A stretch of 64,000 nt of DNA from Enterococcus dispar ATCC 51266 (lineage in GTDB: Bacteria > Bacillota > Bacilli > Lactobacillales > Enterococcaceae): assembly GCF_000406945.1 (NCBI RefSeq), contig NZ_KE136354.1, forward strand, positions 2,468,000 through 2,531,999. The letters run 5' to 3'. The stretch's first letter is position 1. The number at the start of each line of letters is the position of its first letter. The position numbers were made by a program, and so were the translations under genes. Positions 13,679-27,995 of this stretch are shown here, one piece after another. The notes under the pieces are model-generated. The model worked only from the letters and a program-made list of their open reading frames with translations. It was not told where the DNA came from and made no database searches.

Positions 13679-16600
13679 ATGAAGAAAGAGAAAAAAGGGT
13701 TGATTGTTTTAGTAACAATTGCGGGTTTATTGCTAGTTGGAAATGTTATTGGCTATTTACAGCCGATTTTTGCAGGTGAAGATCAGACCGTAATAACAAC
13801 TGATGGTACAGATATAAAAGCTACTGCTAGTTCAGCTATTTTAGAAAAAATTGACGACTCAGACAACCGTGATTACTCAACACAAGTCTCGTCATCTGAA
13901 ACAGCTGAAGAAGCTGAGGATACTGATGAGTCAGATGAATCAGATGAAAAAGTATCAAAAGCACGATTGATAAAAGCAGCAGCAGATGAAACAGCGGTTT
14001 GGGGTACAGAAGCAGCTGCGACGAAAATTATTGAAGTAGATAACTGGTCAGATTTTGACAAGGCGGTCACGAATGGCTTTTCAGGAGATGAAGCAGAAAA
14101 AAATGATGCGGATTATATTAAAGTAACCGCAAGTTTTTCGAATCCTCGTACAGGAACGGCGGCTTATGCCGCTAACGTTACTATTCCGGTTAATCGAGTA
14201 GATTTTGTCGTAGATGGGCTAGAAAATACGATTCATTTTCATGGGACGTCATACAGTTGGCGTTCTAATCGTAGTGATGTCAGAAAAGTTTATGTCAAAG
14301 ATTTAGCGATGTATGGAACGAATTATTATGGTCCTTTTCGAATAGGTGATGCAACTTCAATTGAATCAGAATTAGCAATTGAAAATGTCTATTATGAAGG
14401 TGGCCAGCTAACTGCTTCATATCAAGCTACCATGCGTTTTATTGGCAAAAATACTATTAAGTCTGTTAATAGTTACGAAGACCCCTTTACCCCTGAGAGA
14501 ATTATTAGTACACAAGGAAACCAATCTGGTTTAGAAGCTTTTCGCACCGTCTTTGAAGAAAATAGTGAAACCGAGGTGGACGTTGAAAATGGTAATGGTT
14601 TTATTTTAGCAAGTTATCTTGGAAACATAGGCTCTACTTCAGGAGAAGACGCTTATGCGCTATTGAAAAGTAAAGCTAAAGTAAATATTACTACTCTTGG
14701 AAGTACCGGAGAAAACTATGGTGTTGGCTACTATGTTTTAGCGCTTAATAAAGGCGATGTCATTGTAGAAGACGAAGCGGAATTAACTTTGAATACAGCA
14801 AAGGATACGACTAAAGGTGGAATAGAACTTGCAAATGGAACCAATATTGATATCTCCAATAAAGCTAAGGTGAATATCAATATCAACGGACCTATGGGAG
14901 GTACTCGAAATGCAGTTTCTATCGGGAATAGCTCTAAGTTCAATGTTTGGGATGAAGGAGAATTACACATCAATCTGAAAAATCAGGGAACCGATAGTAG
15001 AGATGTCATCACCGCTGGTAGCGATAGTACTTTTGAAATTGGGCGAAAATCAGTTTTCAATATTAAGTTAGAAGATGGAACAGGTTCGCGAAATTTGATT
15101 GATATTGGAGCCAGGGGGGCTTTTCGCTTCGCTGATGCCTATTCTATTGATTTAGATGCTCGAGCTAATACGAATGCTCATTTGATTAATATGTCAAATC
15201 CAGGTCATTTTATTGCAGATGTCCAAAAAGTTTCAACATGGTTGAAATCAGATCCGACTGTATTATATAAATCTTGGGCTCCAATTTATGGAGTAGATGT
15301 TACGTATAATGGTCGAAATCAAACAGGTTTAGTCGGACAAAGTGTAACGAGCACTATCACTGACGACTTCTTGGAAAACTATTATACGAGTGGACGCTCT
15401 GGCAGCAGTGTTCCGTCAGCTAGTCATACCGGTTTTTCACGGGTTTTGTTTGAATTTATTGAGGATGTCAATATTGGCATAAACGATATTACGGATAATC
15501 CAAACGAAGATGCTCATAAAGAATTCAGTGGGGCGGTAAATCCCGATCCAGAGTATGGTAATGGAACAGCTATTACCTTTTACTATGTTGATCGTGATGA
15601 TTATACAGAAGATGATCCGCTACCATTAGATCGACCAGTTGGAACCCCAGCAGTTGCATCTCCTTTAGAAGGGGATGAGCGGGTTTTTCATACGATTGCG
15701 GATTCTTTTACTGGTAGCTATCAATTTACAGTTCCTGAAGATGAGCGTGAAAATTTAGTTGCCGGTCAGAAAATAATGGCTGTAGGTTGGCTAAATGGGA
15801 AAGAAAACTATGCGATTACGACAGTAAAAGATACAACTGCACCAACTGCAGATGGACGGTCTTACATTGTTGAAAAAGGAGTAATGCCTCCTAGTGCTGA
15901 TGTCTTTTTAGAAAATATTCAGGATACAAATCCAATGGAAAATCAAACATTTGCTATTTCTTACAAGACAGATATTTCTGAGTTAGTTCATCAGCCGACT
16001 AAAGAAGGCCATGTTATTGAAATTAATGTAACAGATGAAGCTGGCAATACAGCTACAGTTGAAGCCAAATTGATTGTTTACGACGAAGGAACCGGCATTG
16101 ATGCTAAAGATATTGAAATTGACGCAACAGACATAAAAGATAAAACTGAAGCAGAAATTAAAGATTTTATTTTGGCCGAAAGTAGCGCAAGTGCATTTTA
16201 TTTAAAAGATGGTGCTGAAGTTGATGTGACAGAAAAGATTGAAGTAGCGGATTTAGGTGGTTTATCCACAGCATCTGGAGAATATACCGTTAAATTAATT
16301 GTACCGACAGATGTCGAAAATGGGTTACAAGAAAGTATCACAAAGGAAATAGTGGTGACAGTAAAAGATGTAGAACCTCCGACTGGTACCGGGAAACATA
16401 CCTTGGTACCGCTAAATAAAGCAGACTACCTCATTGGATCAGATGTCGATTTATTTAAGTTTTTAAGTACGTATCAAGATAATGTAACCGAAGCTGAGGA
16501 ACTTCAAATTCGCTTGGTAGAAAATGCAAATGAAATTGAAACCTTAGTAAGTTCTGTCGGTAGTAAAGTTATTCATGTGATTTTAACGGATAAAGCCAAA

Positions 16601-17878
16601 AATGATAGTGAACCAATCGAAATCCCAATTACTGTAGTAGAAGGTGAGGTAAGCGGCAACGTTGCAATTACCGGAGAAGATTTTCGCTTAGATCGAAGTG
16701 AATGGGAAAACGCAGTTACAGAAAATCAATTAAAAGAATTTATTTTAATAAATGGGCAAGTAGAAGCTGTGGAAATGATCGAAGGTGTTGTTACTTCTGT
16801 TACCGATACAGATAAAGTCAGTATTAATGTTGAAGAAGTCATCGTCGATAGCGCTCATGAAGAACAACCAATGACGATTACATTAATTGTCGACAATGGA
16901 ACGGATAAAGTTTCTAAAACTATTCAAGTAACTTTTAATGATAAAACAGCGCCAACAGCCGAGCCGAAACCGACAGAGATTAATATTGGGAATGTTAATG
17001 CCATTCAAAATGCAGATCCAAAAATATTTTTAGAAAACTTGACCGATAATGTAAGTGAAGTAGACAAGATAAGCGTGAAATTTGCTGAAAATCAAGATTT
17101 TGATGAAATGGTACAAACCCCAGGTCCAAAAGATTTACTGATTGAACTAGTAGATGAAGCCGGCAACAAAGCGACTATTACGGTAGAAATCACGATTTTT
17201 GATAATAGTTTAACGATTCGATTTGTCGATAGTAAAGATCAAGATATTGTGACACCAGTCGTAATTAGCGACAAGATTCCAGGCGATAAAGTTGATTTAA
17301 CGGCAGAGCAAGCCGTTTTAAAAGGATTACAAGATGCTGAGGATTTACATTACTTACTTCTAACTAGACCGGGAAATGAGGAGCAAGTAGAAGTTACTTC
17401 CACCGGTAAAATTGTGAAATATGAATTTGACGGTACTTTATTTATCTCATCTTATCCTGAAACATTGGATTTTGAAACGCATCAAGTTTGGTTTTCTGAC
17501 ATTCGCGTGGAAAAACCACAATATCAAGAGCCATTAGTGATTTGGGATAATCGTGGAATAAAAGCTAATTGGACATTAACGGCAACCTTGACAAAGGACT
17601 TCACCTTGCAAGCAGGAGATGTCGATGATCCAAACTTTATTTTGACGGATGTTTTAAGTTATCAAAAAACTACTGAAGAAAATTCAGCAGTGGTACTACA
17701 CGATGAAGCCGAAGCAGTTTACTCAGCGCAACATGCTGAAGATCAATCAGAGTACAACATTAGTGATACCTGGGATGAAAATGGACCAGGTTTGAAATTT
17801 GAAACGACAGCTGCCAATGTCAAAAAACTTGGCGATTATCAAGCGGAAATTCTTTGGACATTAGGGGATGCAAGATAG
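13679..17878 (+). CDS. Giant surface adhesin: beta-helix, Ig-like repeats, C-terminal WxL domain
   Basis: 1399 residues. N-terminal signal/membrane segment at about 7-32, an acidic Ser/Asp/Glu spacer to about 100, then a pectate-lyase-like right-handed beta-helix region (about 110-560) of the kind called adhesive in lactic acid bacteria. From about 715 to 1180 come Ig-like modules marked by TTAPTADG, EPPTGTG and KTAPTAEP. A MucBP-like strand set (IRFVDSKDQDIV) follows. The last 150 residues are a WxL domain: WTL at 1298 and a terminal WTLGDAR at 1393. WxL domains bind peptidoglycan non-covalently and pair with DUF916 proteins, one of which is encoded 6 kb downstream. Start ATG with AAAGGAG. 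Confidence 0.85.
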   Translation: MKKEKKGLIVLVTIAGLLLVGNVIGYLQPIFAGEDQTVITTDGTDIKATASSAILEKIDDSDNRDYSTQVSSSETAEEAEDTDESDESDEKVSKARLIKAAADETAVWGTEAAATKIIEVDNWSDFDKAVTNGFSGDEAEKNDADYIKVTASFSNPRTGTAAYAANVTIPVNRVDFVVDGLENTIHFHGTSYSWRSNRSDVRKVYVKDLAMYGTNYYGPFRIGDATSIESELAIENVYYEGGQLTASYQATMRFIGKNTIKSVNSYEDPFTPERIISTQGNQSGLEAFRTVFEENSETEVDVENGNGFILASYLGNIGSTSGEDAYALLKSKAKVNITTLGSTGENYGVGYYVLALNKGDVIVEDEAELTLNTAKDTTKGGIELANGTNIDISNKAKVNININGPMGGTRNAVSIGNSSKFNVWDEGELHINLKNQGTDSRDVITAGSDSTFEIGRKSVFNIKLEDGTGSRNLIDIGARGAFRFADAYSIDLDARANTNAHLINMSNPGHFIADVQKVSTWLKSDPTVLYKSWAPIYGVDVTYNGRNQTGLVGQSVTSTITDDFLENYYTSGRSGSSVPSASHTGFSRVLFEFIEDVNIGINDITDNPNEDAHKEFSGAVNPDPEYGNGTAITFYYVDRDDYTEDDPLPLDRPVGTPAVASPLEGDERVFHTIADSFTGSYQFTVPEDERENLVAGQKIMAVGWLNGKENYAITTVKDTTAPTADGRSYIVEKGVMPPSADVFLENIQDTNPMENQTFAISYKTDISELVHQPTKEGHVIEINVTDEAGNTATVEAKLIVYDEGTGIDAKDIEIDATDIKDKTEAEIKDFILAESSASAFYLKDGAEVDVTEKIEVADLGGLSTASGEYTVKLIVPTDVENGLQESITKEIVVTVKDVEPPTGTGKHTLVPLNKADYLIGSDVDLFKFLSTYQDNVTEAEELQIRLVENANEIETLVSSVGSKVIHVILTDKAKNDSEPIEIPITVVEGEVSGNVAITGEDFRLDRSEWENAVTENQLKEFILINGQVEAVEMIEGVVTSVTDTDKVSINVEEVIVDSAHEEQPMTITLIVDNGTDKVSKTIQVTFNDKTAPTAEPKPTEINIGNVNAIQNADPKIFLENLTDNVSEVDKISVKFAENQDFDEMVQTPGPKDLLIELVDEAGNKATITVEITIFDNSLTIRFVDSKDQDIVTPVVISDKIPGDKVDLTAEQAVLKGLQDAEDLHYLLLTRPGNEEQVEVTSTGKIVKYEFDGTLFISSYPETLDFETHQVWFSDIRVEKPQYQEPLVIWDNRGIKANWTLTATLTKDFTLQAGDVDDPNFILTDVLSYQKTTEENSAVVLHDEAEAVYSAQHAEDQSEYNISDTWDENGPGLKFETTAANVKKLGDYQAEILWTLGDAR

Positions 17879-17895
17879 AAAGGGCGTGAGAAAAA

Positions 17896-18255
17896 ATGAA
17901 GCGCAGAATTTTTAGTCTTAAACGAATTGTAACAACCGCCGTTATTTTTCTTGCGTTGTTTACATCTTTTGGTGAATTTTACGCCGAAGAACAAGGTCAG
18001 AAATCGCAAAGTGTAACGACAGAAGGCGTGATTGTATTTGAAGAAGGAGAACAAGGAAGTGTTGAATCCACGCAACAGTCACAAAGTATTACACCAGTTG
18101 CAAAACCTAGTGGCACGTCAAAACTTTATGGTAAAAGTTACCCTGCTACAGGGGAAATGATAAAGAAAAGTTTGATGTACACAGGTGTTGGCCTCATCTT
18201 ACTATTCTTCTTGTTACTTTTTTGGAAGAAACGCAAAAAGGAGGAGAAGGGATGA
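17896..18255 (+). CDS. Small sortase-anchored surface protein (YPATG motif)
   Basis: 119 residues: signal peptide at 1-32, a Gln/Ser-rich ectodomain of about 45 residues, the sorting signal YPATGE at 82-87, a hydrophobic helix and a KKRKKEEKG tail. The first position of the usual LPxTG is Tyr. Short wall-anchored proteins of this kind are a normal member of enterococcal WxL loci, where they sit between the large adhesin and the WxL genes as here. The stop overlaps the next start as ATGA. No sortase gene is in the window. Confidence 0.85.
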   Translation: MKRRIFSLKRIVTTAVIFLALFTSFGEFYAEEQGQKSQSVTTEGVIVFEEGEQGSVESTQQSQSITPVAKPSGTSKLYGKSYPATGEMIKKSLMYTGVGLILLFFLLLFWKKRKKEEKG

Positions 18256-19016
18256 AAAAATTCTTTTTACTATCTTCTTTCCTCTTCTTGATGATGCCGC
18301 AGATGGTATTGGCACAAAGCGATACTGTTGGAACTGGGAAAATTGAATTTAATGATCATCAACAAGTAGCTGATCCAGAAAATCCAGTAAATCCAATTGA
18401 ACCAGAAGATTTAATCCCCCCTAGTTCAGATTTATTGCGGTTGGATTACGTTCCAAGTTTGAAATTCTCAACGCAAAAAAGTGATGCAAATGATCAAAAA
18501 TACGCAGCAAATGCCATGATGTTTGCAGATGACACAATGCCACGAGCTCAGTTTATTCAAGTAACCGATCGCAGAGGAACAAAGGCAGGGTGGAACGTTA
18601 GTGTCAGACAAGAAAAACAATTTGCCACAGCAGAGAATATAGAGTTAGACGGTGCGATGTTGTCTTTTGATTACTCCTGGACAAATGGTTCGGATAAAGC
18701 CAAAGCGCCCGTTGTAAAAAAAGACATTATTGAAATGAAAATTGGCGAAACACAAGAAATCGCCAATGCCAAAAAAGGTACAGGTGATGGTACTTGGTTT
18801 ATCTCATTTGGCGCATCACAAAATAATTCGCAGGGTGTAAAAAATACTTTAGAACCCAGACTTGATCGTGACGATCAAGTAATTATGCACGATACGTTTA
18901 ATAAACCACTATTTTTAAATTCTGCTATCCAACTGGCAGTCCCAGGACGAACAGAAAAAGTTATCGGTAAACCTTATAAAACGGAGCTAACTTGGATTTT
19001 ATCTGAGTTACCATAA
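18252..19016 (+). CDS. WxL domain surface protein 1
   Basis: 254 residues from ATG 18252 (GGAGAAGG upstream; the longer frame from 18222 has no RBS). Signal peptide at 1-21, then the GxGKIEF start typical of WxL proteins, a Pro-rich spacer (NPVNPIEPED) and the WxL domain. The two Trp motifs read WNV (first, altered in its third position) and WIL near the end (TWILSELP). It is exported and held on the wall by the WxL domain. Confidence 0.9.
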   Translation: MKKFFLLSSFLFLMMPQMVLAQSDTVGTGKIEFNDHQQVADPENPVNPIEPEDLIPPSSDLLRLDYVPSLKFSTQKSDANDQKYAANAMMFADDTMPRAQFIQVTDRRGTKAGWNVSVRQEKQFATAENIELDGAMLSFDYSWTNGSDKAKAPVVKKDIIEMKIGETQEIANAKKGTGDGTWFISFGASQNNSQGVKNTLEPRLDRDDQVIMHDTFNKPLFLNSAIQLAVPGRTEKVIGKPYKTELTWILSELP

Positions 19017-19035
19017 AAAATTGGAGGAAAAGAAG

Positions 19036-19797
19036 ATGAAAAACATTACAAAATTAACTACCACAGCATTACTAGGAGCATTGGCGTTAGGCGTGGTTGC
19101 CCCAGCAGCAAATGCGGCCACAGATGTTATAGGAGAAGGTAAAATTGAGTTCAAGCAAGAAACACCAGAAAATCCTACTCCAACACCAGGGGGGGAAGAT
19201 GGCCCAGAAATTAAAGAACCAGAACCAAATCCAGATCCAAATCCTTTGAAAATTCTTTCTGTTACGGATATGGATTTTGCTATTCATGAAGTACCAGTGG
19301 GTAATGCGGATCGTTCTTATGATGCCCTACCATTTAATGCAACACCAGTAGATCCTGACGCAGACCCATTTGATACAGCCCACTTTGTTCGCTATATGGA
19401 TGTTCGGGCAGATGGGGCAGAAAACCACCATACTATTAAAGCACAGTTGACCAAACAATTTACTCATTCAAATAATACAAATACATTAGCGGCTTCATCG
19501 TTGCTGTATAAAAATATTACCCTAGAAGCAAGTAATGGTACCGCAGATACGAATACACCATCTGCCGCTGCAGTTACCAATGCTGCGAGTGCGGAAGTCA
19601 CTGAAGATGAACAAGAAACGATTGTTGAAAATACAGAAACAGGTAAAGGACGTGGTGTATTCGATATTATCTTTGATAAAAAAGATGATTATACCACTTA
19701 TGATGGGGTTTCATTAGAAGTACCAGCTGCAGTGAATATGATTACTGGTACTTACACGGGTGAAGTAACTTGGACAATTGAGGATGCACGCAATTAA
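19036..19797 (+). CDS. WxL domain surface protein 2
   Basis: 253 residues from ATG 19036 with GGAGG upstream. Signal peptide ends AANA-A at about 28. GEGKIEF follows, then a Pro-rich spacer (PTPTPGGEDGPEIKEPEP...). The last motif is TWTIEDARN, a WxL variant with Ile. The first Trp motif is absent: the matching segment reads NHHTIKAQLTKQF, where the giant adhesin has NWTLTATLTKDF. It is followed by a hairpin and then the WxL-interacting protein gene. Wall binding may be weaker than for its neighbour; this is inference. Confidence 0.88.
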   Translation: MKNITKLTTTALLGALALGVVAPAANAATDVIGEGKIEFKQETPENPTPTPGGEDGPEIKEPEPNPDPNPLKILSVTDMDFAIHEVPVGNADRSYDALPFNATPVDPDADPFDTAHFVRYMDVRADGAENHHTIKAQLTKQFTHSNNTNTLAASSLLYKNITLEASNGTADTNTPSAAAVTNAASAEVTEDEQETIVENTETGKGRGVFDIIFDKKDDYTTYDGVSLEVPAAVNMITGTYTGEVTWTIEDARN

Positions 19798-19816
19798 GCA
19801 AACATAGTTTTACCAT

Positions 19817-19863
19817 TCAGACGGCTGCGGTGTGTGGTCATTTTCAAGTAGCCGTCTGATTTA
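19817..19863 (+). terminator. Terminator-like hairpin inside the WxL operon
   Basis: Stem TCAGACGGCT / AGCCGTCTGA with a 23-base loop, followed by only TTT. It probably lowers rather than stops transcription into the downstream genes, giving more WxL protein than partner protein. Confidence 0.6.
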
Positions 19864-19884
19864 ATGACTAAAGGGGTGTGTACC

Positions 19885-20976
19885 ATGAATAAAAAGGCCT
19901 GGTTGGGAATAATCTTAGTCTACATAACAGGATTATTTCTCGGAAATACAACTATCAGTTATGCTGATGAGAGCGGTGAGGTGGAAGGTGGCTTCTCTTA
20001 TGAAGTCATCCGACCGGAAAATCAAATAGATAAGGGTGTCGGCTATTTTGATTTGTTAATGAAACCGAAACAAAAACAGACAGTCAAAATAAAGTTGAAC
20101 AATACAGGTGACAAAGAAATCACCATTTTGGTGGGAGCCTATGGTGGAAAAACCAACAGTGGTGGTGTGATTGAGTATAGTAATAATGCGATTGAAAATG
20201 ACAAATCATTAAAATATCCTTTTGAATCGGTTGTAAAAGTACCAAAAGAAGTCAAACTGGCGGCTAATTCATCAGAAGATTTAAATATTGAAATTGCAAT
20301 GCCTAAATCAGAATTTGAAGGCTATATTGCTGGTGGTATTTTATTACAGGAAAAAGATGCGGAAGGGGCAAAATCCCAAAGCCAACAAGGGATGGTGGTC
20401 AATAAGTTTGCCTATCTAACCGGCATGTTACTAAGTGAGAAGAAAACAGATAACATAAAACAAGAAATGAAATTAAATCGGGTTTATGCAACATCTAAGA
20501 ATCATCGCAATGTGATCAACGTGAATTATTCCAATATCCAACCAGATTTTGTTGATGGCATGACGACAGATGTTCAGATTATGAAAGCAGATGCCGATGA
20601 AGTAGTATATGATGCGAAAAAATCGCAAATGCGAATGGCCCCAAACTCGATGATTGATTTTCCGGTTAGTTTAGAAGGTTCGGAAATGGTACCAGGAAAC
20701 TATCGGGCTAAAATTTTAGTAACAACTGAAAAAGGCGGTCGTTGGGAATGGGAGCAAAAATTCACTATTACCGATGAAGAAGCAGATAAATACAATGCAC
20801 GCGATTTAACATTGGTACAAGAGCCAGGACTTAACTGGCGTTTGATTTTACTAATTGTCGGCGGGCTATTAATTGTTCTGCTGCTTATTTATCTGATTGT
20901 CCGCAAAATGAACAAAGAGCGCCGCAAAAAAGAATTAATTGCCAAAAAATTAGCAGCGAAAAAGAAAAAAGAATAG
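19885..20976 (+). CDS. WxL-interacting protein (DUF916 and DUF3324)
   Basis: 363 residues from ATG 19885, with AAAGGGGTG upstream. Signal peptide at 1-29, then a DUF916 domain opening with GFSYEVIRPENQ and YFDLLMKPKQKQTVKI, then a DUF3324 region, one transmembrane helix at about 310-335 and a very basic tail (KKELIAKKLAAKKKKE). Such proteins sit in the membrane and bind WxL proteins at the cell surface. This is the diagnostic partner that makes the cluster a WxL locus. Confidence 0.92.
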   Translation: MNKKAWLGIILVYITGLFLGNTTISYADESGEVEGGFSYEVIRPENQIDKGVGYFDLLMKPKQKQTVKIKLNNTGDKEITILVGAYGGKTNSGGVIEYSNNAIENDKSLKYPFESVVKVPKEVKLAANSSEDLNIEIAMPKSEFEGYIAGGILLQEKDAEGAKSQSQQGMVVNKFAYLTGMLLSEKKTDNIKQEMKLNRVYATSKNHRNVINVNYSNIQPDFVDGMTTDVQIMKADADEVVYDAKKSQMRMAPNSMIDFPVSLEGSEMVPGNYRAKILVTTEKGGRWEWEQKFTITDEEADKYNARDLTLVQEPGLNWRLILLIVGGLLIVLLLIYLIVRKMNKERRKKELIAKKLAAKKKKE

Positions 20977-20988
20977 GGGGAGGTAGTG

Positions 20989-21648
20989 ATGGAACTACTT
21001 GATTGGCTTTTTGTCATCCTCTTATCACTGGCTATTTTTGCAGCAATCTTCTTAGTTATTTCACTAGTTGGCTGGATTGCGGATAGTCAGAAGTTAAATA
21101 GTGTTACTGCAATAAATCCCAACAAAAAACAACGGCGGGCTTGGTTACAGTATCGACTAGAATTGACGAATCAAATTAGTAAAAAAAGAAACCACGCACT
21201 TTTTGCGGTGATCTTTGCAGCAGTTTTTGCTGGTGGGAGTTTTTATATTCAGTATCACCAATCAACCAGTTTGACCGCCAAAGACTCAGAAAATGTAGTG
21301 CAAGGCTATTTTATCTTGCAAGAATTGGAAAAACAATTAACCGAACTCCCCACTAGTGGCAATGAAAAAAAGGCGCAAGCGACCATTTATGAATTGTCTT
21401 CACGTTTGGTTAGTTATGGTTCAAATGTTCCCGAACCAAGATTGGGAAAAGAAGAAAAATTGGTCTTAAAACAACTCTACACCCGCATGAAACAATTAGG
21501 AATTAATTTAGCTGGACTTTCCATTACCCAGCTAAAAACAGAAGATGTCAATACGGGCTATTTAAATGATATAAAACGAACGCAATTAGCCCAGGAAAAA
21601 GTTTTTGAGCACTTCAAGGTCGATAAAGCTGCCCTCGAGCAAGAATAG
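20989..21648 (+). CDS. Unknown two-helix membrane protein of the WxL locus
   Basis: 219 residues, not recognised. Hydrophobic segments at about 4-30 and 66-85, separated by a basic loop (NPNKKQRRAWLQYRL), then a soluble, mostly helical C-terminal half with no cysteines. The topology would put the C-terminal half outside the cell if both segments span. RBS GGGGGAGG; ATG 20989 is preferred to GTG 20986 on spacing. It lies between the WxL-interacting protein and the signal peptidase pair, so a role in assembling or processing the surface proteins is likely but unproven. Confidence 0.7.
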   Translation: MELLDWLFVILLSLAIFAAIFLVISLVGWIADSQKLNSVTAINPNKKQRRAWLQYRLELTNQISKKRNHALFAVIFAAVFAGGSFYIQYHQSTSLTAKDSENVVQGYFILQELEKQLTELPTSGNEKKAQATIYELSSRLVSYGSNVPEPRLGKEEKLVLKQLYTRMKQLGINLAGLSITQLKTEDVNTGYLNDIKRTQLAQEKVFEHFKVDKAALEQE

Positions 21649-21659
21649 GAGGGCTAAGG

Positions 21660-22277
21660 ATGAAAAAGAGATTAACACCATATCAAATTGACTTATTGGC
21701 GCGTAGTATTGAGCAAAAAAGACGCCGACAAATTTGGCGTGACAGTCTGATTACAATCCTGATTTTTAGTCTATTGGTAACCGGTACTTTCTTAGCATTC
21801 TTTCGCCTTTGGCAAGTTGAAGATTTTAGCATGTTGCCTAATTTGCAAGCAGGTGATCATTTACTTTTAGCCAAACATAAAGATATTACGCGCTTTGATT
21901 TGATCGCGTTTGACATCCCTGGGCAAAACAAACAAGCAATTCGACGGGTAGTTGGTTTACCGGGAGAAGATATTCGTTATTACGACGATATTTTATACGT
22001 GGGAAGTCGTGAAATACCCGAACGCTTCTTAAGTGAGGAGTTATTAGCAGCCAAAGAACAAGATTATCAATTGACGCAAAATTTTACGTTGCAGGATATT
22101 CCAGGGACAAAAAAGCAACGAATTCCAGAAAATCATTATTTGGTTTTAGCAGATAACCGTAGTTTTGGCGTTGACAGTCGTGATTATGGACTGATTGCCA
22201 AAGACAATATTTTAGGCGTTGCCAGTGGAATAACTTTCCCTATTTCCACATATAGTATGTTGCAGTTTAGGAGTTGA
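21660..22277 (+). CDS. Type I signal peptidase homologue with Arg in place of the catalytic Lys
   Basis: 205 residues. A basic cytoplasmic N-terminus (RRRQIWRD), one transmembrane helix at about 32-50, then the peptidase domain. The nucleophile region is FSMLPNLQAGD with Ser57 present. The catalytic-Lys box, normally YxKRVIGLPGD, reads AIRRVVGLPGE, with Arg95 at the Lys position. Box E is LADNRSFGVDSR (Gly to Ala and one Ser lost). In type I signal peptidases the Lys is the general base and Arg does not replace it in tested cases, so this is probably inactive or altered. It is followed at once by a second, intact copy. Confidence 0.88.
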   Translation: MKKRLTPYQIDLLARSIEQKRRRQIWRDSLITILIFSLLVTGTFLAFFRLWQVEDFSMLPNLQAGDHLLLAKHKDITRFDLIAFDIPGQNKQAIRRVVGLPGEDIRYYDDILYVGSREIPERFLSEELLAAKEQDYQLTQNFTLQDIPGTKKQRIPENHYLVLADNRSFGVDSRDYGLIAKDNILGVASGITFPISTYSMLQFRS

Positions 22278-22282
22278 AGGTG

Positions 22283-22957
22283 ATGGCAGAAATAAAGAAA
22301 AAGCAGCAAAAATCACAAATTGCGTCGCCTACAATGCATACAAAAAGAAAACGTAAAAAATTGTCTCAAGCACAAATTGCCCTTATTTTACGCCACCGTC
22401 GGCAACAACGTGTTCAAAGATATTGGGATTTCTTTTTATTATTTGTAACGATTGTATTTTGTCTTTTCTTTTTGACCAACTACAAAGCGCATCAGATTGT
22501 TGGTAACTCTATGACTTCAACACTTCAAAATGGCGATCGTATTTTAGTCAAAAAAACACAAAATATTCAACGCTTTGATATCGTTACCTTTCGTCCGGAT
22601 GAAAAGAATACAGAAGAAACTTATATTAAACGGGTCATCGCAATGCCAGGTGATAAATTTGTAATTCAAGGAACGAATATGTATTTATTTTTCCAAAAAA
22701 GTATTGTAGAAGATTTTGAAGCTATGCGCTATACCAGTAATTTACCGGACAGTACGGAAGTTTTGCAGTTGGATAAAAAAGTGGCAGATAACTTACGCAA
22801 TAAAACCCAAATTCCGAAAGACTATTATTTTGTCTTAGGGGATAATCGCAAAAATTCCGCTGATAGTCGTATCTTAGGTTTAGTACCGAAAAATAGTCTT
22901 GAAGGAGTGATGAAATTTCGCTTTTATCCTTTCAATAAGACGGGGATGGTCCATTAA
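22283..22957 (+). CDS. Type I signal peptidase, catalytically intact
   Basis: 224 residues from ATG 22283; GGAG lies before it, while TTG 22274 and GTG 22280 fit less well. Long Lys/Arg/Gln-rich cytoplasmic tail, a transmembrane helix at about 48-68, Ser76 in VGNSMTSTLQ, Lys116 in YIKRVIAMPGD, and box E LGDNRKNSADSR. The usual Pro after SMx is Ser. Its N-terminal tail (LSQAQIALILRHRRQQRVQRYWD) matches that of the preceding gene (LTPYQIDLLARSIEQKRRRQIWRD), so the two came from one duplication. Likely processes exported proteins of this island. Confidence 0.92.
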   Translation: MAEIKKKQQKSQIASPTMHTKRKRKKLSQAQIALILRHRRQQRVQRYWDFFLLFVTIVFCLFFLTNYKAHQIVGNSMTSTLQNGDRILVKKTQNIQRFDIVTFRPDEKNTEETYIKRVIAMPGDKFVIQGTNMYLFFQKSIVEDFEAMRYTSNLPDSTEVLQLDKKVADNLRNKTQIPKDYYFVLGDNRKNSADSRILGLVPKNSLEGVMKFRFYPFNKTGMVH

Positions 22958-22965
22958 AATTAATA

Positions 22966-23062
22966 ACCAAACGAAATAAGACGCACTAGTCCTAGTACGC
23001 CCGCTAAAAAGTAGAAAAATTTGGCAGGACACATATCGGACTATTTCGTCTTTTTTGGTTAC
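22966..23062. terminator. Long interrupted hairpin ending the WxL operon
   Basis: AACCAAACGAAATA on the left pairs with TATTTCGTCTTTTTTGGTT on the right (five-base bulge). A small palindrome ACTAGTCCTAGT sits inside the loop. The right arm contains T-runs. It may act as terminator for the peptidase gene; the size is more like a repeat element. Confidence 0.5.
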
Positions 23063-23130
23063 AAAAATTTCTAAAATGTATCTATTTTAAACAGGGTCAA
23101 TGATCACGTTAGTGTAAGGTTTCAAAATAA

Positions 23131-24440: not shown

Positions 24441-24443
24441 GTG

Positions 24444-27400
24444 ATGAAAAGAAAACTGCAAAGGTTGGGGAAATTTCTTTTTGCAGGGATGCTTATTTTA
24501 CCAATTATCTTACCTGTTATTTTTTCTAGTTCAGCACTAGCTGCGGAGCAAAAATTAACGTTGGCTTTTAAGCCACAACCGACCAAAGTTGCCGATCAAG
24601 GGGAGTTAGTAATTACAACTATCAATCCTAGCGAAGTAATAGTTACGGTGACGCCAGATCAAGGGTTGCGTTTAACAAAGACAAAAACACAAGCTGGAAA
24701 GACCACGTATCAATACAAAGTAGAAGACGTGGGGAAATACGCCATTACAGCGACACAAATTGGAACCAATCAAAAGGAAACTACAGTGGTGACAATTAAT
24801 CAAACTGGCACAACGAACACAGCAATGACAGCGGATTCAAAATCAGCAGCTGCTATTGATTCCAATGCAACAAATGATGAAAGTTCATCAATGCAAAACC
24901 AAACGACTGTAAGTTCTGCTACTGAAACAACCAATCAAAGTAAAGCAACATTACAAGCAAAAGCGACACAAGCAAATGCTGATAATAAAGCAGTAAAAGG
25001 TGCCGTAGTACGAGAATTGCCAACAGCAGATGAAGACAAGTTGGGCAACCTTTGGGACTACAATGCCTATTTGACTGGGCAACATTCAGCCAATATGGCC
25101 GATACTGAAGGTGCAATAGCGGTAAAAGGCGACAGCGTTTTTCCCAATGATTTACAAACCTTTACGTATGGTGCTTCATTTCGCGAAGTGAATACTACAA
25201 TTGGCGATCCCATTCGAGAAGATCAATATGTCAATGTCTTAATTGGCGGTAAAATTGCTAATCGGGCTCAAAATGATTGGGTGAAACCTGTAGTAGAAAA
25301 TCGAACCAGTAATGGTAAAACACAAGGCTGGTTAGTAGGCCGAATGAATATGAACGATTGGATTTATAAGAATTTGGGCGAATGGTTTTCAGCCATTGCT
25401 TATAAAACAAGAGACAGTGTTATTGACGGTGCTTTTGATAGCTTACAAACGCAAGAAAATCAATTAACCGGAAAATTAGATCAGGTAACAACCAATTTGG
25501 GCGAAACGGTGTATGAAGGGGATAATTTCAAATTAATCGCCTCAAAAAGCGATGCTGAAGTGCTAATTTTGAAGCCCATAAGTATTCAAGATCCATTAGA
25601 ACTTAAAACACTTTCGATTCCAGCAGAATATCTGCAAGGAAATCGTTACAAACAAATTATTGTAAATTCTCCCGCAACAAAAGTTGTAATGAATGGAACC
25701 AGCATTGCCGGAGCAGTACAACAAGATGTGGGAACCTATAGCCAATTAGCTAGCAAAGTTACGTTTTATTTGCCCCATGCCCAAAGTATTACAAACTATG
25801 TGGAAGATGATGGCGCTTATCCAGATACTGCCCAACTTGGGATTGCAGAAGACGGATCGGATAACTACGGAAAGGACAATGGTAAAAACTATTATCATAG
25901 TTTTACCATCGGCAGTATTGTCGCTCCTAACGCGACCGTGGTTTATCATTCTGGCAGTATTAATGGGTATGTTTTTGTCAAAAACTTGCATCAACGCGAT
26001 GGGATGGAAATTCATAACTTTTATAATCCTTGGATGCCAGAAATTGAACAAGAAAAAGAAGGAGAAGTTCAGTTGCACAAAGAAGATGCCACTGATAAAT
26101 CTGCTTTGGCCGGAGCTGAATTTGGTATTCGCAAAAAAGGGGATTCCGATTTTATTGCGGTTAAAACAACGGATGAAACTGGTAATTTGACCTTTAGTGG
26201 TTTGGCATATGGCGAATATGAAATTTTGGAAACAAAAGCACCGAATGGTTATCAATTATCTCCGATGGTTCATGAAGTGACAATTAATGAAGATAAGCCA
26301 ACGCTTAGCCTTACGTTAGAAAATCAAAAAGAACCAGTTGCCCACGTGGGAATTGAAATTCATAAAGAAGATGCTGAAAACCAAGAAGAATTAGCCGGAG
26401 CTGTTTTTGGTCTAAGAGGTTTACGGGAGCATGAATTCACAAAAGAAGAAACAAATGCTGCCGGTAATGCTGAATTTGAAGACTTAGTTCCAGGTTATTA
26501 TGAATTAGTTGAACTGACTTCACCTGAAGGTTATGAAATTGATCCTCATCCACAAATTATTTATGTGGACGGACAAAATAAAAAAGAAGTTATAGAAATT
26601 GAAAACACAGCTAAGGAAGAAAAAACTGGTAGTATTCAACTTAAGAAAATTGACGCTGCGACAGGAGATGCATTAGCAGGTGTAGAATTTGGTGTCAGAG
26701 AATTCGGATACCGAGATTTTGTCACCAAAAAAACCGATAGTAACGGTGTCGTACAATTTAGTGATTTAAAAGCAGGCGCATTTTACACGGTGGCAGAACT
26801 AAAAACTTTGACAGGCTATGAATTAACGCCACGACCATTAGTCGTTAAAGTTAGTGAAAAAGGTCAAGATGTCAATATTGGTAATTGGACCAATCACAAA
26901 GAAGTTCTCAAAAAAGGTTCTTTACAAATTGAAAAAAGCGATCAAGAAACTGGTTCTCCTTTAAAGGGCGCTATCTTTGGTGTACGAGCGTTGGGTCAAA
27001 AAGACTACATTGAAAAAGAAACTGATAAGAGTGGTATTGTACGTTTTGATGATTTGGCTCAGGGCGTTTATGAAGTACGTGAATTAAAAGCACCCCTTGG
27101 CTACAGTACTACCAATCTCGTTAAAAAAGTTAACGTCGGTTATGATGAAGAAAATAAACTTACGATTGAAAAATGGACCAATGTGAAGACAGCGGTACAA
27201 CTTGGTAGTGGAAAAATTATTAAAGTTGACGAAAATGGCTCACCGCTATCAGGCGCAGAGTTTGCTATTCGTAATGACCATGAACGAGAATTTAGTCACC
27301 ATGCTGTCACGAATGAACAAGGGGAAGCTTATTTTGACAATCTACCTTTTGGCAAATACGACGTCATGGAAACAAAAGCCCCAGATGGCTATCAACCTGA

Positions 27401-27995
27401 TGGGAAAATTTATCATCTGTATGTTGGGAACAAAGAAACAGATGAAGAAACAATTACGGTTACCAATCAAAAGAAAGTTACGAATACAGGACAAGTTGCA
27501 CTTGAAAAAAGAGAGCAGGATAGTGGAAAGGTCATGACCGGAGTCGTCTTCAATTTAGAAAAATCTGATGGAACAATTTTAGACATGTATACAACTGATA
27601 AAAATGGACGTATCTTTGTTAAAGATTTGCCATTGGGGAACTATCAATTTGTCGAACAAAAAACATTACCTGGCTATGAACTCGATCCAACCCCATTAAC
27701 CTTTACCATTACGCATGACAATGAAACACAAGTACTTTTATTAAATATGGTCAATGTTAAGGAAAATCCGACCGAATCCACGACAGAATCTACGACGGGT
27801 ACGACAGATACAGTTACAACGTCAGAATCTACAGCAGTTGGAGTGGGCACTACAACGAATTCTACCAAAACAGCAAATGCAACAAAGGATAATCATTATC
27901 CTAAAACTGGGGATCGTCCTAACTGGTATTTGATGATTGGCGGAACAGGTCTAATAGCTGGAGTTATTTATCTCTTTTATCGAAAAAATAAATAA
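24444..27995 (+). CDS. Choice-of-anchor-A surface protein with six SpaA/Cna-B repeats and YPKTG anchor
   Basis: 1183 residues. Signal peptide at about 1-34, a Thr/Ser/Ala-rich region to 190, then a choice-of-anchor A domain (LGNLWDYNAYLTGQ, MADTEGAIAVKG) to about 510. Six SpaA-type prealbumin-like domains follow from about 541 to 1110, each with an early Lys (HKEDA, KKIDA, EKSDQ...), FGIR/FGVR and a late Glu in an ETKAPxGY-type motif; these residues form internal Lys-Asn isopeptide bonds in the family. A Thr/Ser wall-spanning stretch and the sorting signal YPKTGD (1152-1157), helix and KNK tail end it. ATG 24444 is preferred over GTG 24441. Confidence 0.88.
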   Translation: MKRKLQRLGKFLFAGMLILPIILPVIFSSSALAAEQKLTLAFKPQPTKVADQGELVITTINPSEVIVTVTPDQGLRLTKTKTQAGKTTYQYKVEDVGKYAITATQIGTNQKETTVVTINQTGTTNTAMTADSKSAAAIDSNATNDESSSMQNQTTVSSATETTNQSKATLQAKATQANADNKAVKGAVVRELPTADEDKLGNLWDYNAYLTGQHSANMADTEGAIAVKGDSVFPNDLQTFTYGASFREVNTTIGDPIREDQYVNVLIGGKIANRAQNDWVKPVVENRTSNGKTQGWLVGRMNMNDWIYKNLGEWFSAIAYKTRDSVIDGAFDSLQTQENQLTGKLDQVTTNLGETVYEGDNFKLIASKSDAEVLILKPISIQDPLELKTLSIPAEYLQGNRYKQIIVNSPATKVVMNGTSIAGAVQQDVGTYSQLASKVTFYLPHAQSITNYVEDDGAYPDTAQLGIAEDGSDNYGKDNGKNYYHSFTIGSIVAPNATVVYHSGSINGYVFVKNLHQRDGMEIHNFYNPWMPEIEQEKEGEVQLHKEDATDKSALAGAEFGIRKKGDSDFIAVKTTDETGNLTFSGLAYGEYEILETKAPNGYQLSPMVHEVTINEDKPTLSLTLENQKEPVAHVGIEIHKEDAENQEELAGAVFGLRGLREHEFTKEETNAAGNAEFEDLVPGYYELVELTSPEGYEIDPHPQIIYVDGQNKKEVIEIENTAKEEKTGSIQLKKIDAATGDALAGVEFGVREFGYRDFVTKKTDSNGVVQFSDLKAGAFYTVAELKTLTGYELTPRPLVVKVSEKGQDVNIGNWTNHKEVLKKGSLQIEKSDQETGSPLKGAIFGVRALGQKDYIEKETDKSGIVRFDDLAQGVYEVRELKAPLGYSTTNLVKKVNVGYDEENKLTIEKWTNVKTAVQLGSGKIIKVDENGSPLSGAEFAIRNDHEREFSHHAVTNEQGEAYFDNLPFGKYDVMETKAPDGYQPDGKIYHLYVGNKETDEETITVTNQKKVTNTGQVALEKREQDSGKVMTGVVFNLEKSDGTILDMYTTDKNGRIFVKDLPLGNYQFVEQKTLPGYELDPTPLTFTITHDNETQVLLLNMVNVKENPTESTTESTTGTTDTVTTSESTAVGVGTTTNSTKTANATKDNHYPKTGDRPNWYLMIGGTGLIAGVIYLFYRKNK

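What the first reader, a model, noticed from the sequence alone, without database searches (positions are those of the whole stretch)
21660..22957. Tandem signal peptidases in a WxL island, one with Arg for the catalytic Lys
Seen: two adjacent type I signal peptidase genes share the same N-terminal cytoplasmic tail pattern, so they are a local duplication. The first keeps Ser57 but has AIRRVVGLPGE where the Lys box should be, and its box E is altered; the second has Ser76 and Lys116. Known: the Lys is the general base of this family, and in some Gram-positive pilus and Sps systems a non-catalytic paralogue assists an active one or the assembly machinery. Inferred: the first may be a non-cleaving chaperone or substrate selector for the WxL proteins or the adhesin.
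Basis: partly seen in the sequence, partly recalled or inferred. Interest (0 to 1): 0.75.

Follow-up and report, generated by a model that had tools for sequence, protein, structure and literature searches.

The report
Dead signal peptidase in WxL operons
Next to genes for a bacterial surface-protein complex sits a relative of the signal-cutting enzyme whose cutting residues have been replaced across its family, which suggests that it holds or guides exported proteins instead of cutting them.

Summary
Gene 1 (21660-22277, SP1) keeps Ser57 but has Arg95 where signal peptidases have Lys; gene 2 (SP2) keeps Ser and Lys.

The Arg is no strain oddity. Among 100 readable SP1-type proteins from WxL loci of two Lactobacillales families, 94 have Arg and none Lys; the Ser is kept in only 50. 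All 55 SP2-type proteins keep both. SP1 and SP2 are separate clades spanning several genera. SP1 evolves under constraint and has its own active-site signature.

SP1 follows an unnamed 220-aa membrane protein (orf220) in WxL operons. Of 20 WxL loci without orf220, none has a signal peptidase nearby and 9 have a sortase; none of 102 locus entries with orf220 has a sortase. But 13 of 60 loci chosen by orf220 lack a readable SP1.

Best reading: a non-catalytic signal-peptidase homologue that serves assembly of one WxL operon type, working like streptococcal SipA with different residues and neighbours. Peptide binding and client are inferred. 'Local duplication' is at best ancient. New variant of a known kind.

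The parts
13679..17878 (+). large WxL protein (pectate-lyase-like adhesive domain, C-terminal WxL)
   Evidence: Pfam PF20585, PF13731
17896..18255 (+). small LPXTG surface protein (EF2685/EF0750 family)
   Evidence: NCBIfam NF053819, 64.3 bits against cut-off 47
18252..19016 (+). small WxL protein A (from the ATG)
   Evidence: PF13731, 156 bits
19036..19797 (+). small WxL protein B (from the ATG)
   Evidence: PF13731, 70.9 bits
19864..20976 (+). WxL-interacting protein, DUF916 + DUF3324
   Evidence: PF06030, PF11797
20986..21648 (+). orf220: membrane protein of an unnamed family, constant neighbour of SP1
   Evidence: no Pfam or NCBIfam match; found in 30 of 103 family genomes
21660..22277 (+). 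SP1: signal-peptidase homologue without the catalytic Lys
   Evidence: PF10502 106.3 bits, TIGR02227 116 bits; Arg95
21828..21830 (+). codon of Ser57 (nucleophile position)
   Evidence: AGC
21942..21944 (+). codon of Arg95 (position of the catalytic Lys)
   Evidence: CGA
22283..22957 (+). SP2: signal peptidase with Ser76 (22508-22510) and Lys116 (22628-22630), from the ATG
   Evidence: PF10502 128.3 bits

Best explanation
SP1 is a catalytically dead signal peptidase that became a dedicated part of one type of WxL operon. It has a basic cytoplasmic tail, one membrane helix and an outside peptidase-fold domain. The Ser-Lys machinery is lost, while the S1 part of the peptide cleft and the box D/E scaffold are kept. 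Most likely it works with orf220 and the WxL-interacting protein at the outer membrane face: it binds a peptide of the operon's exported WxL or LPXTG proteins in a cleft that holds but does not cut, so that the surface complex is put together before or while SP2 or the housekeeping enzymes remove signal peptides. Shown: loss of Lys across the family, repeated loss of Ser, kept S1 residues, constraint, operon linkage, absence of sortase. Inferred: peptide binding, the client, the partnership with orf220 and WxLIP.
For: Lys in 0 of 100 readable SP1-type proteins, Arg in 94. Inside the clade of 77, Ser/non-Ser needs at least 12 changes, Arg/other 1. The Ser278 equivalent is Ser in 20 of 77 SP1, 51 of 51 SP2, 15 of 15 housekeeping rows. 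Aromatic residue just before the Ser position: 76 of 77 SP1, 0 of 66 others; aromatic two before the Lys position: 0 of 77 SP1, 66 of 66 others. S1-pocket Met kept in 77 of 77, bridge position 94 hydrophobic in 72 of 77, position 53 in 64 of 77 (pocket residues from passages of PMC4704075). dN/dS 0.20 against E. canintestini. Operon order kept in 41 distinct loci. SP1 after orf220 in 36 of 40 loci chosen by orf220. No signal peptidase in 0 of 20 WxL loci without orf220 read as: 0 of 20 have one. Precedent: SipA lacks the pair and is needed for S. pyogenes pili (PMC4049620).
Against: No binding, cleavage or deletion data. Half of the family, the window's protein included, keeps Ser. The S3 side of the cleft is changed: position 51 is hydrophobic in 15 of 77 SP1 against 15 of 15 housekeeping rows (also only 2 of 51 SP2), so the ligand need not be a signal peptide. 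orf220 stands without a readable SP1 in 4 of 40 and 9 of 20 loci (one of the 9 is cut by a contig end, one is a 63-aa fragment). Six SP1-type proteins lack Arg too. The pre-Ser aromatic is weaker outside the 77: 9 of 12 and 9 of 11 (read). One closely related pair gave dN/dS 0.88 on almost no divergence. For SipA itself pull-downs found no bound peptide, and changing its residues at the dead site had no effect. The structure model was too poor to use (mean pLDDT 51.9).
Confidence: 0.62

Rival explanations
1. SP1 is a partner or decoy of an active signal peptidase: it pairs with SP2 or a housekeeping enzyme, or competes for precursors, to tune cleavage of the WxL precursors.
For: SP2, intact in 55 of 55, directly follows in 49 of 77 SP1 loci; both carry long basic tails, unlike housekeeping enzymes.
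Against: 28 of 77 SP1 loci lack SP2, and Ser retention does not depend on the presence of SP2 (Fisher p = 1.0).
Confidence: 0.15
2. SP1 is a pure scaffold: the outside domain is a binding surface for orf220 or WxLIP, and the former cleft is idle.
For: The invariant DNR/DSR box and fold residues could be kept for structure alone; S3-side positions changed; orf220 is the constant neighbour.
Against: Met58 is invariant in 77 of 77 next to the variable Ser, and the clade-specific changes cluster around the former active site.
Confidence: 0.12
3. SP1 is still a slow or specialised peptidase, with Arg or another residue as base.
For: The window's protein and 49 of 99 other readable relatives keep Ser.
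Against: 36 relatives have Gly, 9 Ala, 3 Met at that place in the same operon setting; the Lys-supporting positions are relaxed. The high pKa of Arg argues against it as a general base (recalled chemistry).
Confidence: 0.08
4. SP1 is a decaying copy carried along in the operon.
For: It is missing, broken or altered at some loci.
Against: dN/dS 0.19-0.25 in three of four pairs; 20 columns invariant over 27 diverse members; one clade across families.
Confidence: 0.03

Closest known systems
SipA/LepA of streptococcal sortase pili (S. pyogenes FCT-2, -3, -4; homologues in S. pneumoniae and S. agalactiae)
   Same: Signal-peptidase fold without the Ser-Lys pair, encoded in a surface-structure operon, peptide cleft kept (PMC4049620, abstract, sections 8, 9 and 12 part 1; PMC7900414, passages)
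   Different: SipA has Asp and Gly at the two sites and works with a class B sortase on covalent pili. SP1 has Arg at the Lys site, lies in WxL operons with orf220 and no sortase, and its profile matches the SipA chain 4n31 only over box E (E 1.5e-8)
[quoted passage not shown] S. aureus SpsB 4wvg)
   Same: Homology over the whole domain, E 1.5e-46 to 1.6e-41 with the SP1 profile
   Different: Catalytic Lys replaced in 100 of 100 SP1-type proteins, Ser in 50
Csc/WxL gene clusters
   Same: Large WxL, small WxL, WxLIP (DUF916/DUF3324) and small LPXTG protein (PMC1534035, PMC9772566, PMC10599100, PMC5341603, passages)
   Different: The passages seen name no orf220-like protein or signal peptidase as a cluster member. 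The word peptidase does not occur in the main text of PMC9772566 and PMC10599100; of two uses of signal peptidase in PMC1534035 one was shown

Membership tests
Type I signal peptidase, active enzyme | Homology over the catalytic domain | tested here: met
   PF10502 106.3 bits (cut-off 22.9), TIGR02227 116 bits (cut-off 47); solved chains
Type I signal peptidase, active enzyme | Ser nucleophile and Lys general base | tested here: not met
   Ser57 present, Arg95 for Lys; Lys in 0 of 100 SP1-type proteins
Type I signal peptidase, active enzyme | Cleaves signal peptides | not testable with these tools
   needs a cleavage assay
SipA/LepA pilus assembly factor | Signal-peptidase homologue lacking the Ser-Lys pair | tested here: met
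   Pair broken in 100 of 100; fold inferred from homology, no usable model
SipA/LepA pilus assembly factor | Encoded with pilins and a sortase | tested here: not met
   No sortase among the nine proteins scanned; sortase in 0 of 102 locus entries of sets 1, 2 and 5. The LPXTG adhesin at 24441 has SpaA repeats, as pilins do, but lies beyond a gene on the other strand
SipA/LepA pilus assembly factor | Needed for assembly of the surface structure | not testable with these tools
   needs a deletion
WxL (Csc) cluster | Large WxL, small WxL and WxLIP genes together | tested here: met
   window island, 41 distinct loci

The most novel reading that the evidence does not exclude
WxL systems come in at least two machineries that use the same operon place after WxLIP: one with a sortase, one with orf220 and a dead signal peptidase. 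In the second, a signal-peptide-cutting site was turned into a clamp: Arg for Lys, with the moved aromatic residue, grips the carbonyl or carboxylate of an exported peptide and gates assembly. This would be a sortase-free assembly pathway run by a pseudo-protease, present in 5 to 13 copies per genome in one unnamed genus of the family (orf220 counts).
Probability: 0.25. Interest if true: 0.85.

Novelty: new variant of a known kind. Interest (0 to 1): 0.62.

Why it matters
It adds a large, conserved family of apparently dead signal peptidases to the single well-studied case, SipA, whose role is still open. Because the family is natural, old and present in many copies, it offers sequence covariation and easy deletions to learn what a non-cutting signal peptidase does. 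It splits WxL loci, a little-understood surface system, into types with different accessory machinery. In practice, these proteins pass the NCBIfam cut-off for 'signal peptidase I' and so are likely to be named as active enzymes.

Tried and rejected

Recent duplication: rejected, since SP1 and SP2 are separate clades. Decay: rejected. A link between Ser retention and SP2: none. Naming the genomes: not possible beyond E. canintestini and one E. wangshanyuanii plasmid, whose orf220 locus has no listed signal peptidase. An expression lead, a paper on E. caccae (PMC6152273, passages), lists 'signal peptidase I' genes without telling which kind. Promoter scan: 27 sites against 32.6 expected, no help. 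A search for LexA K156R papers found none.

Prior description: (open-access papers only) listed no paper that, by its title and abstract start, describes an Arg-bearing or dead signal peptidase in WxL clusters; subscription papers were not searched.

Limits of the counts: they are loci, not independent events; near relatives are included (99 distinct sequences among 100). Loci were picked by hand from hit lists: set 1 by SP1 similarity, sets 2 and 5 by orf220 at places not yet fetched, f8 by SP1-profile score, the 20 controls from the best WxLIP hits away from orf220. Dropped before the count of 100: L006 (same locus as L075) and the fragment in L267. The SP1/SP2 label was first set by the residue at 95; the tree then gave the same two groups.

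Full report
What is there. The window is part of a 2.82-Mb genome in three contigs. The nearest named relative is Enterococcus canintestini DSM 21207, 92% identical over SP1. The + strand island 13679-22957 encodes a large WxL protein, a small LPXTG protein, two small WxL proteins, the WxL-interacting protein WxLIP (DUF916 + DUF3324), a 220-aa membrane protein without Pfam or NCBIfam match (orf220), and two signal-peptidase homologues, SP1 and SP2. The genome holds five peptidase S26 genes, these two and three elsewhere.

The residues. SP1 keeps Ser57; the place of the Lys is Arg95, as the printed alignments to five solved chains show. SP2 has both. Two box E residues that touch the Lys in E. 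coli (Gly272 and Ser278; PMC4049620) are Ala164 and Gly170 in SP1.

Conservation. In the genus, 5 of 10 genomes have an orthologue of 60-100% identity, all with Arg. I then read 41 distinct loci chosen by SP1 similarity, 40 chosen by orf220, 11 loci of a second family, f8, in 15 stretches chosen by profile score (12 SP1-type proteins), and 20 more chosen by orf220. Of 100 readable SP1-type proteins, 94 have Arg, 2 Leu and one each Gln, Val, Ser and Phe; none has Lys. At the Ser position stand 50 Ser, 36 Gly, 9 Ala, 3 Met, 1 Glu and 1 Arg. All 55 SP2-type proteins have Ser and Lys.

History. In a tree of 143 proteins, SP1 (77), SP2 (51) and housekeeping enzymes (15) are three groups; SP1 is set off with support 97 and SP2 with 98 (quick IQ-TREE, SH-aLRT). 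With the second family added, its 12 proteins and SP1 lie together on one side of one branch. So Lys was probably lost once, while Ser/non-Ser needs at least 12 changes within SP1. dN/dS for SP1 is 0.20, 0.19 and 0.25 in three pairs, close to SP2 (0.16, 0.11, 0.11); a fourth pair, almost identical, gave 0.88.

A remodelled site. An aromatic residue just before the Ser position is found in 76 of 77 SP1 and 0 of 66 others, and the aromatic residue two before the Lys is missing in 77 of 77 SP1 and present in 66 of 66 others. In the added sets the first sign holds in 9 of 12 and 9 of 11, the second in 12 of 12 and 11 of 11 (read). The Met of the S1 pocket is invariant, and the bridge positions are mostly hydrophobic, but the S3 side has changed (pocket residues from PMC4704075). 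In SpsB the Lys hydrogen-bonds the carboxyl end of the cut peptide and a carbonyl of an uncut one; an Arg there could do the same without acting as a base. That is inference.

The operon type. orf220 was found in 30 of 103 family genomes, and WxLIP in 82 of 103. A profile of orf220 rings in 34 of 390 genomes of the order and 6 of 398 of the class, in two families only. Twenty WxLIP loci picked away from orf220 have no signal peptidase within about 6 kb, and 9 of them have a sortase close after WxLIP, one of them the second WxL locus of this genome. Sortase was found in 0 of 42, 0 of 40 and 0 of 20 entries of sets 1, 2 and 5, and in 0 of 15 stretches of f8 (seven sortases of this genome as queries). 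The small WxL proteins of orf220 loci also group apart from those of the control loci (fast tree with warnings about long branches, and the search profiles were trained on set 1). Against a strict bond: SP1 is not readable in 4 of 40 and 9 of 20 loci with orf220. SP2 is absent in 28 of 77 SP1 loci.

Mechanism. The facts fit a non-cutting peptidase homologue that serves the assembly of the WxL complex, as SipA serves pili. SipA lacks the pair, keeps the cleft and is essential for polymerisation, yet no peptide binding could be shown for it, and its residues at the dead site can be changed without effect. SP1 differs in keeping a strongly preferred residue, Arg, at the site. Which peptide is bound, if any, and whether orf220 and WxLIP are partners, is not known.

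Standing. SP1 is a homologue of type I signal peptidases but fails their defining dyad. It works, I think, like SipA, but it is not a member by operon or by close sequence similarity. Seven literature searches listed no description of it, within open-access papers and judged by titles and abstract starts.

Noticed in passing
20986-21648: orf220: an unnamed membrane-protein family (two predicted hydrophobic stretches by eye, helical-looking outer part) that marks this WxL operon type; also on an E. wangshanyuanii plasmid (NZ_CP021876.1) in a rearranged WxL locus without listed signal peptidase.
   Followed up: partly
L175 (own genome C1:2327700-2340100): The genome's second WxL locus has a sortase close after WxLIP and neither orf220 nor a signal peptidase.
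   Followed up: partly
21660-21740 and 22283-22430: SP1 and SP2 types carry long basic cytoplasmic tails: medians 68 aa (net +25) and 49 aa (net +14) against 12 aa (+1) in 15 housekeeping enzymes (start codons not verified). The window's SP1 tail is short.
   Followed up: partly
22508-22516: SP2 of the window has Ser instead of Pro two places after the catalytic Ser (GNSMTSTL); 49 of 51 SP2 have Pro there.
   Followed up: no
24441-27995: Large LPXTG adhesin with six SpaA-type repeats and an ice-binding-like/choice-of-anchor A domain just beyond the island.
   Followed up: no
22958-23075: Stable hairpin followed by a T run after SP2 (z -3.0), a likely operon end.
   Followed up: partly
L236-L239: A third family (f2) has two adjacent signal peptidases, both with Ser and Lys, without WxL genes in the stretch read.
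   Followed up: no
17896-18255, 18252-19016, 19036-19797: The mature N-terminal ends of the small LPXTG and both small WxL proteins share a G-x-I-x-F pattern (by eye); NF053819 also touches WxL protein B below its cut-off.
   Followed up: no
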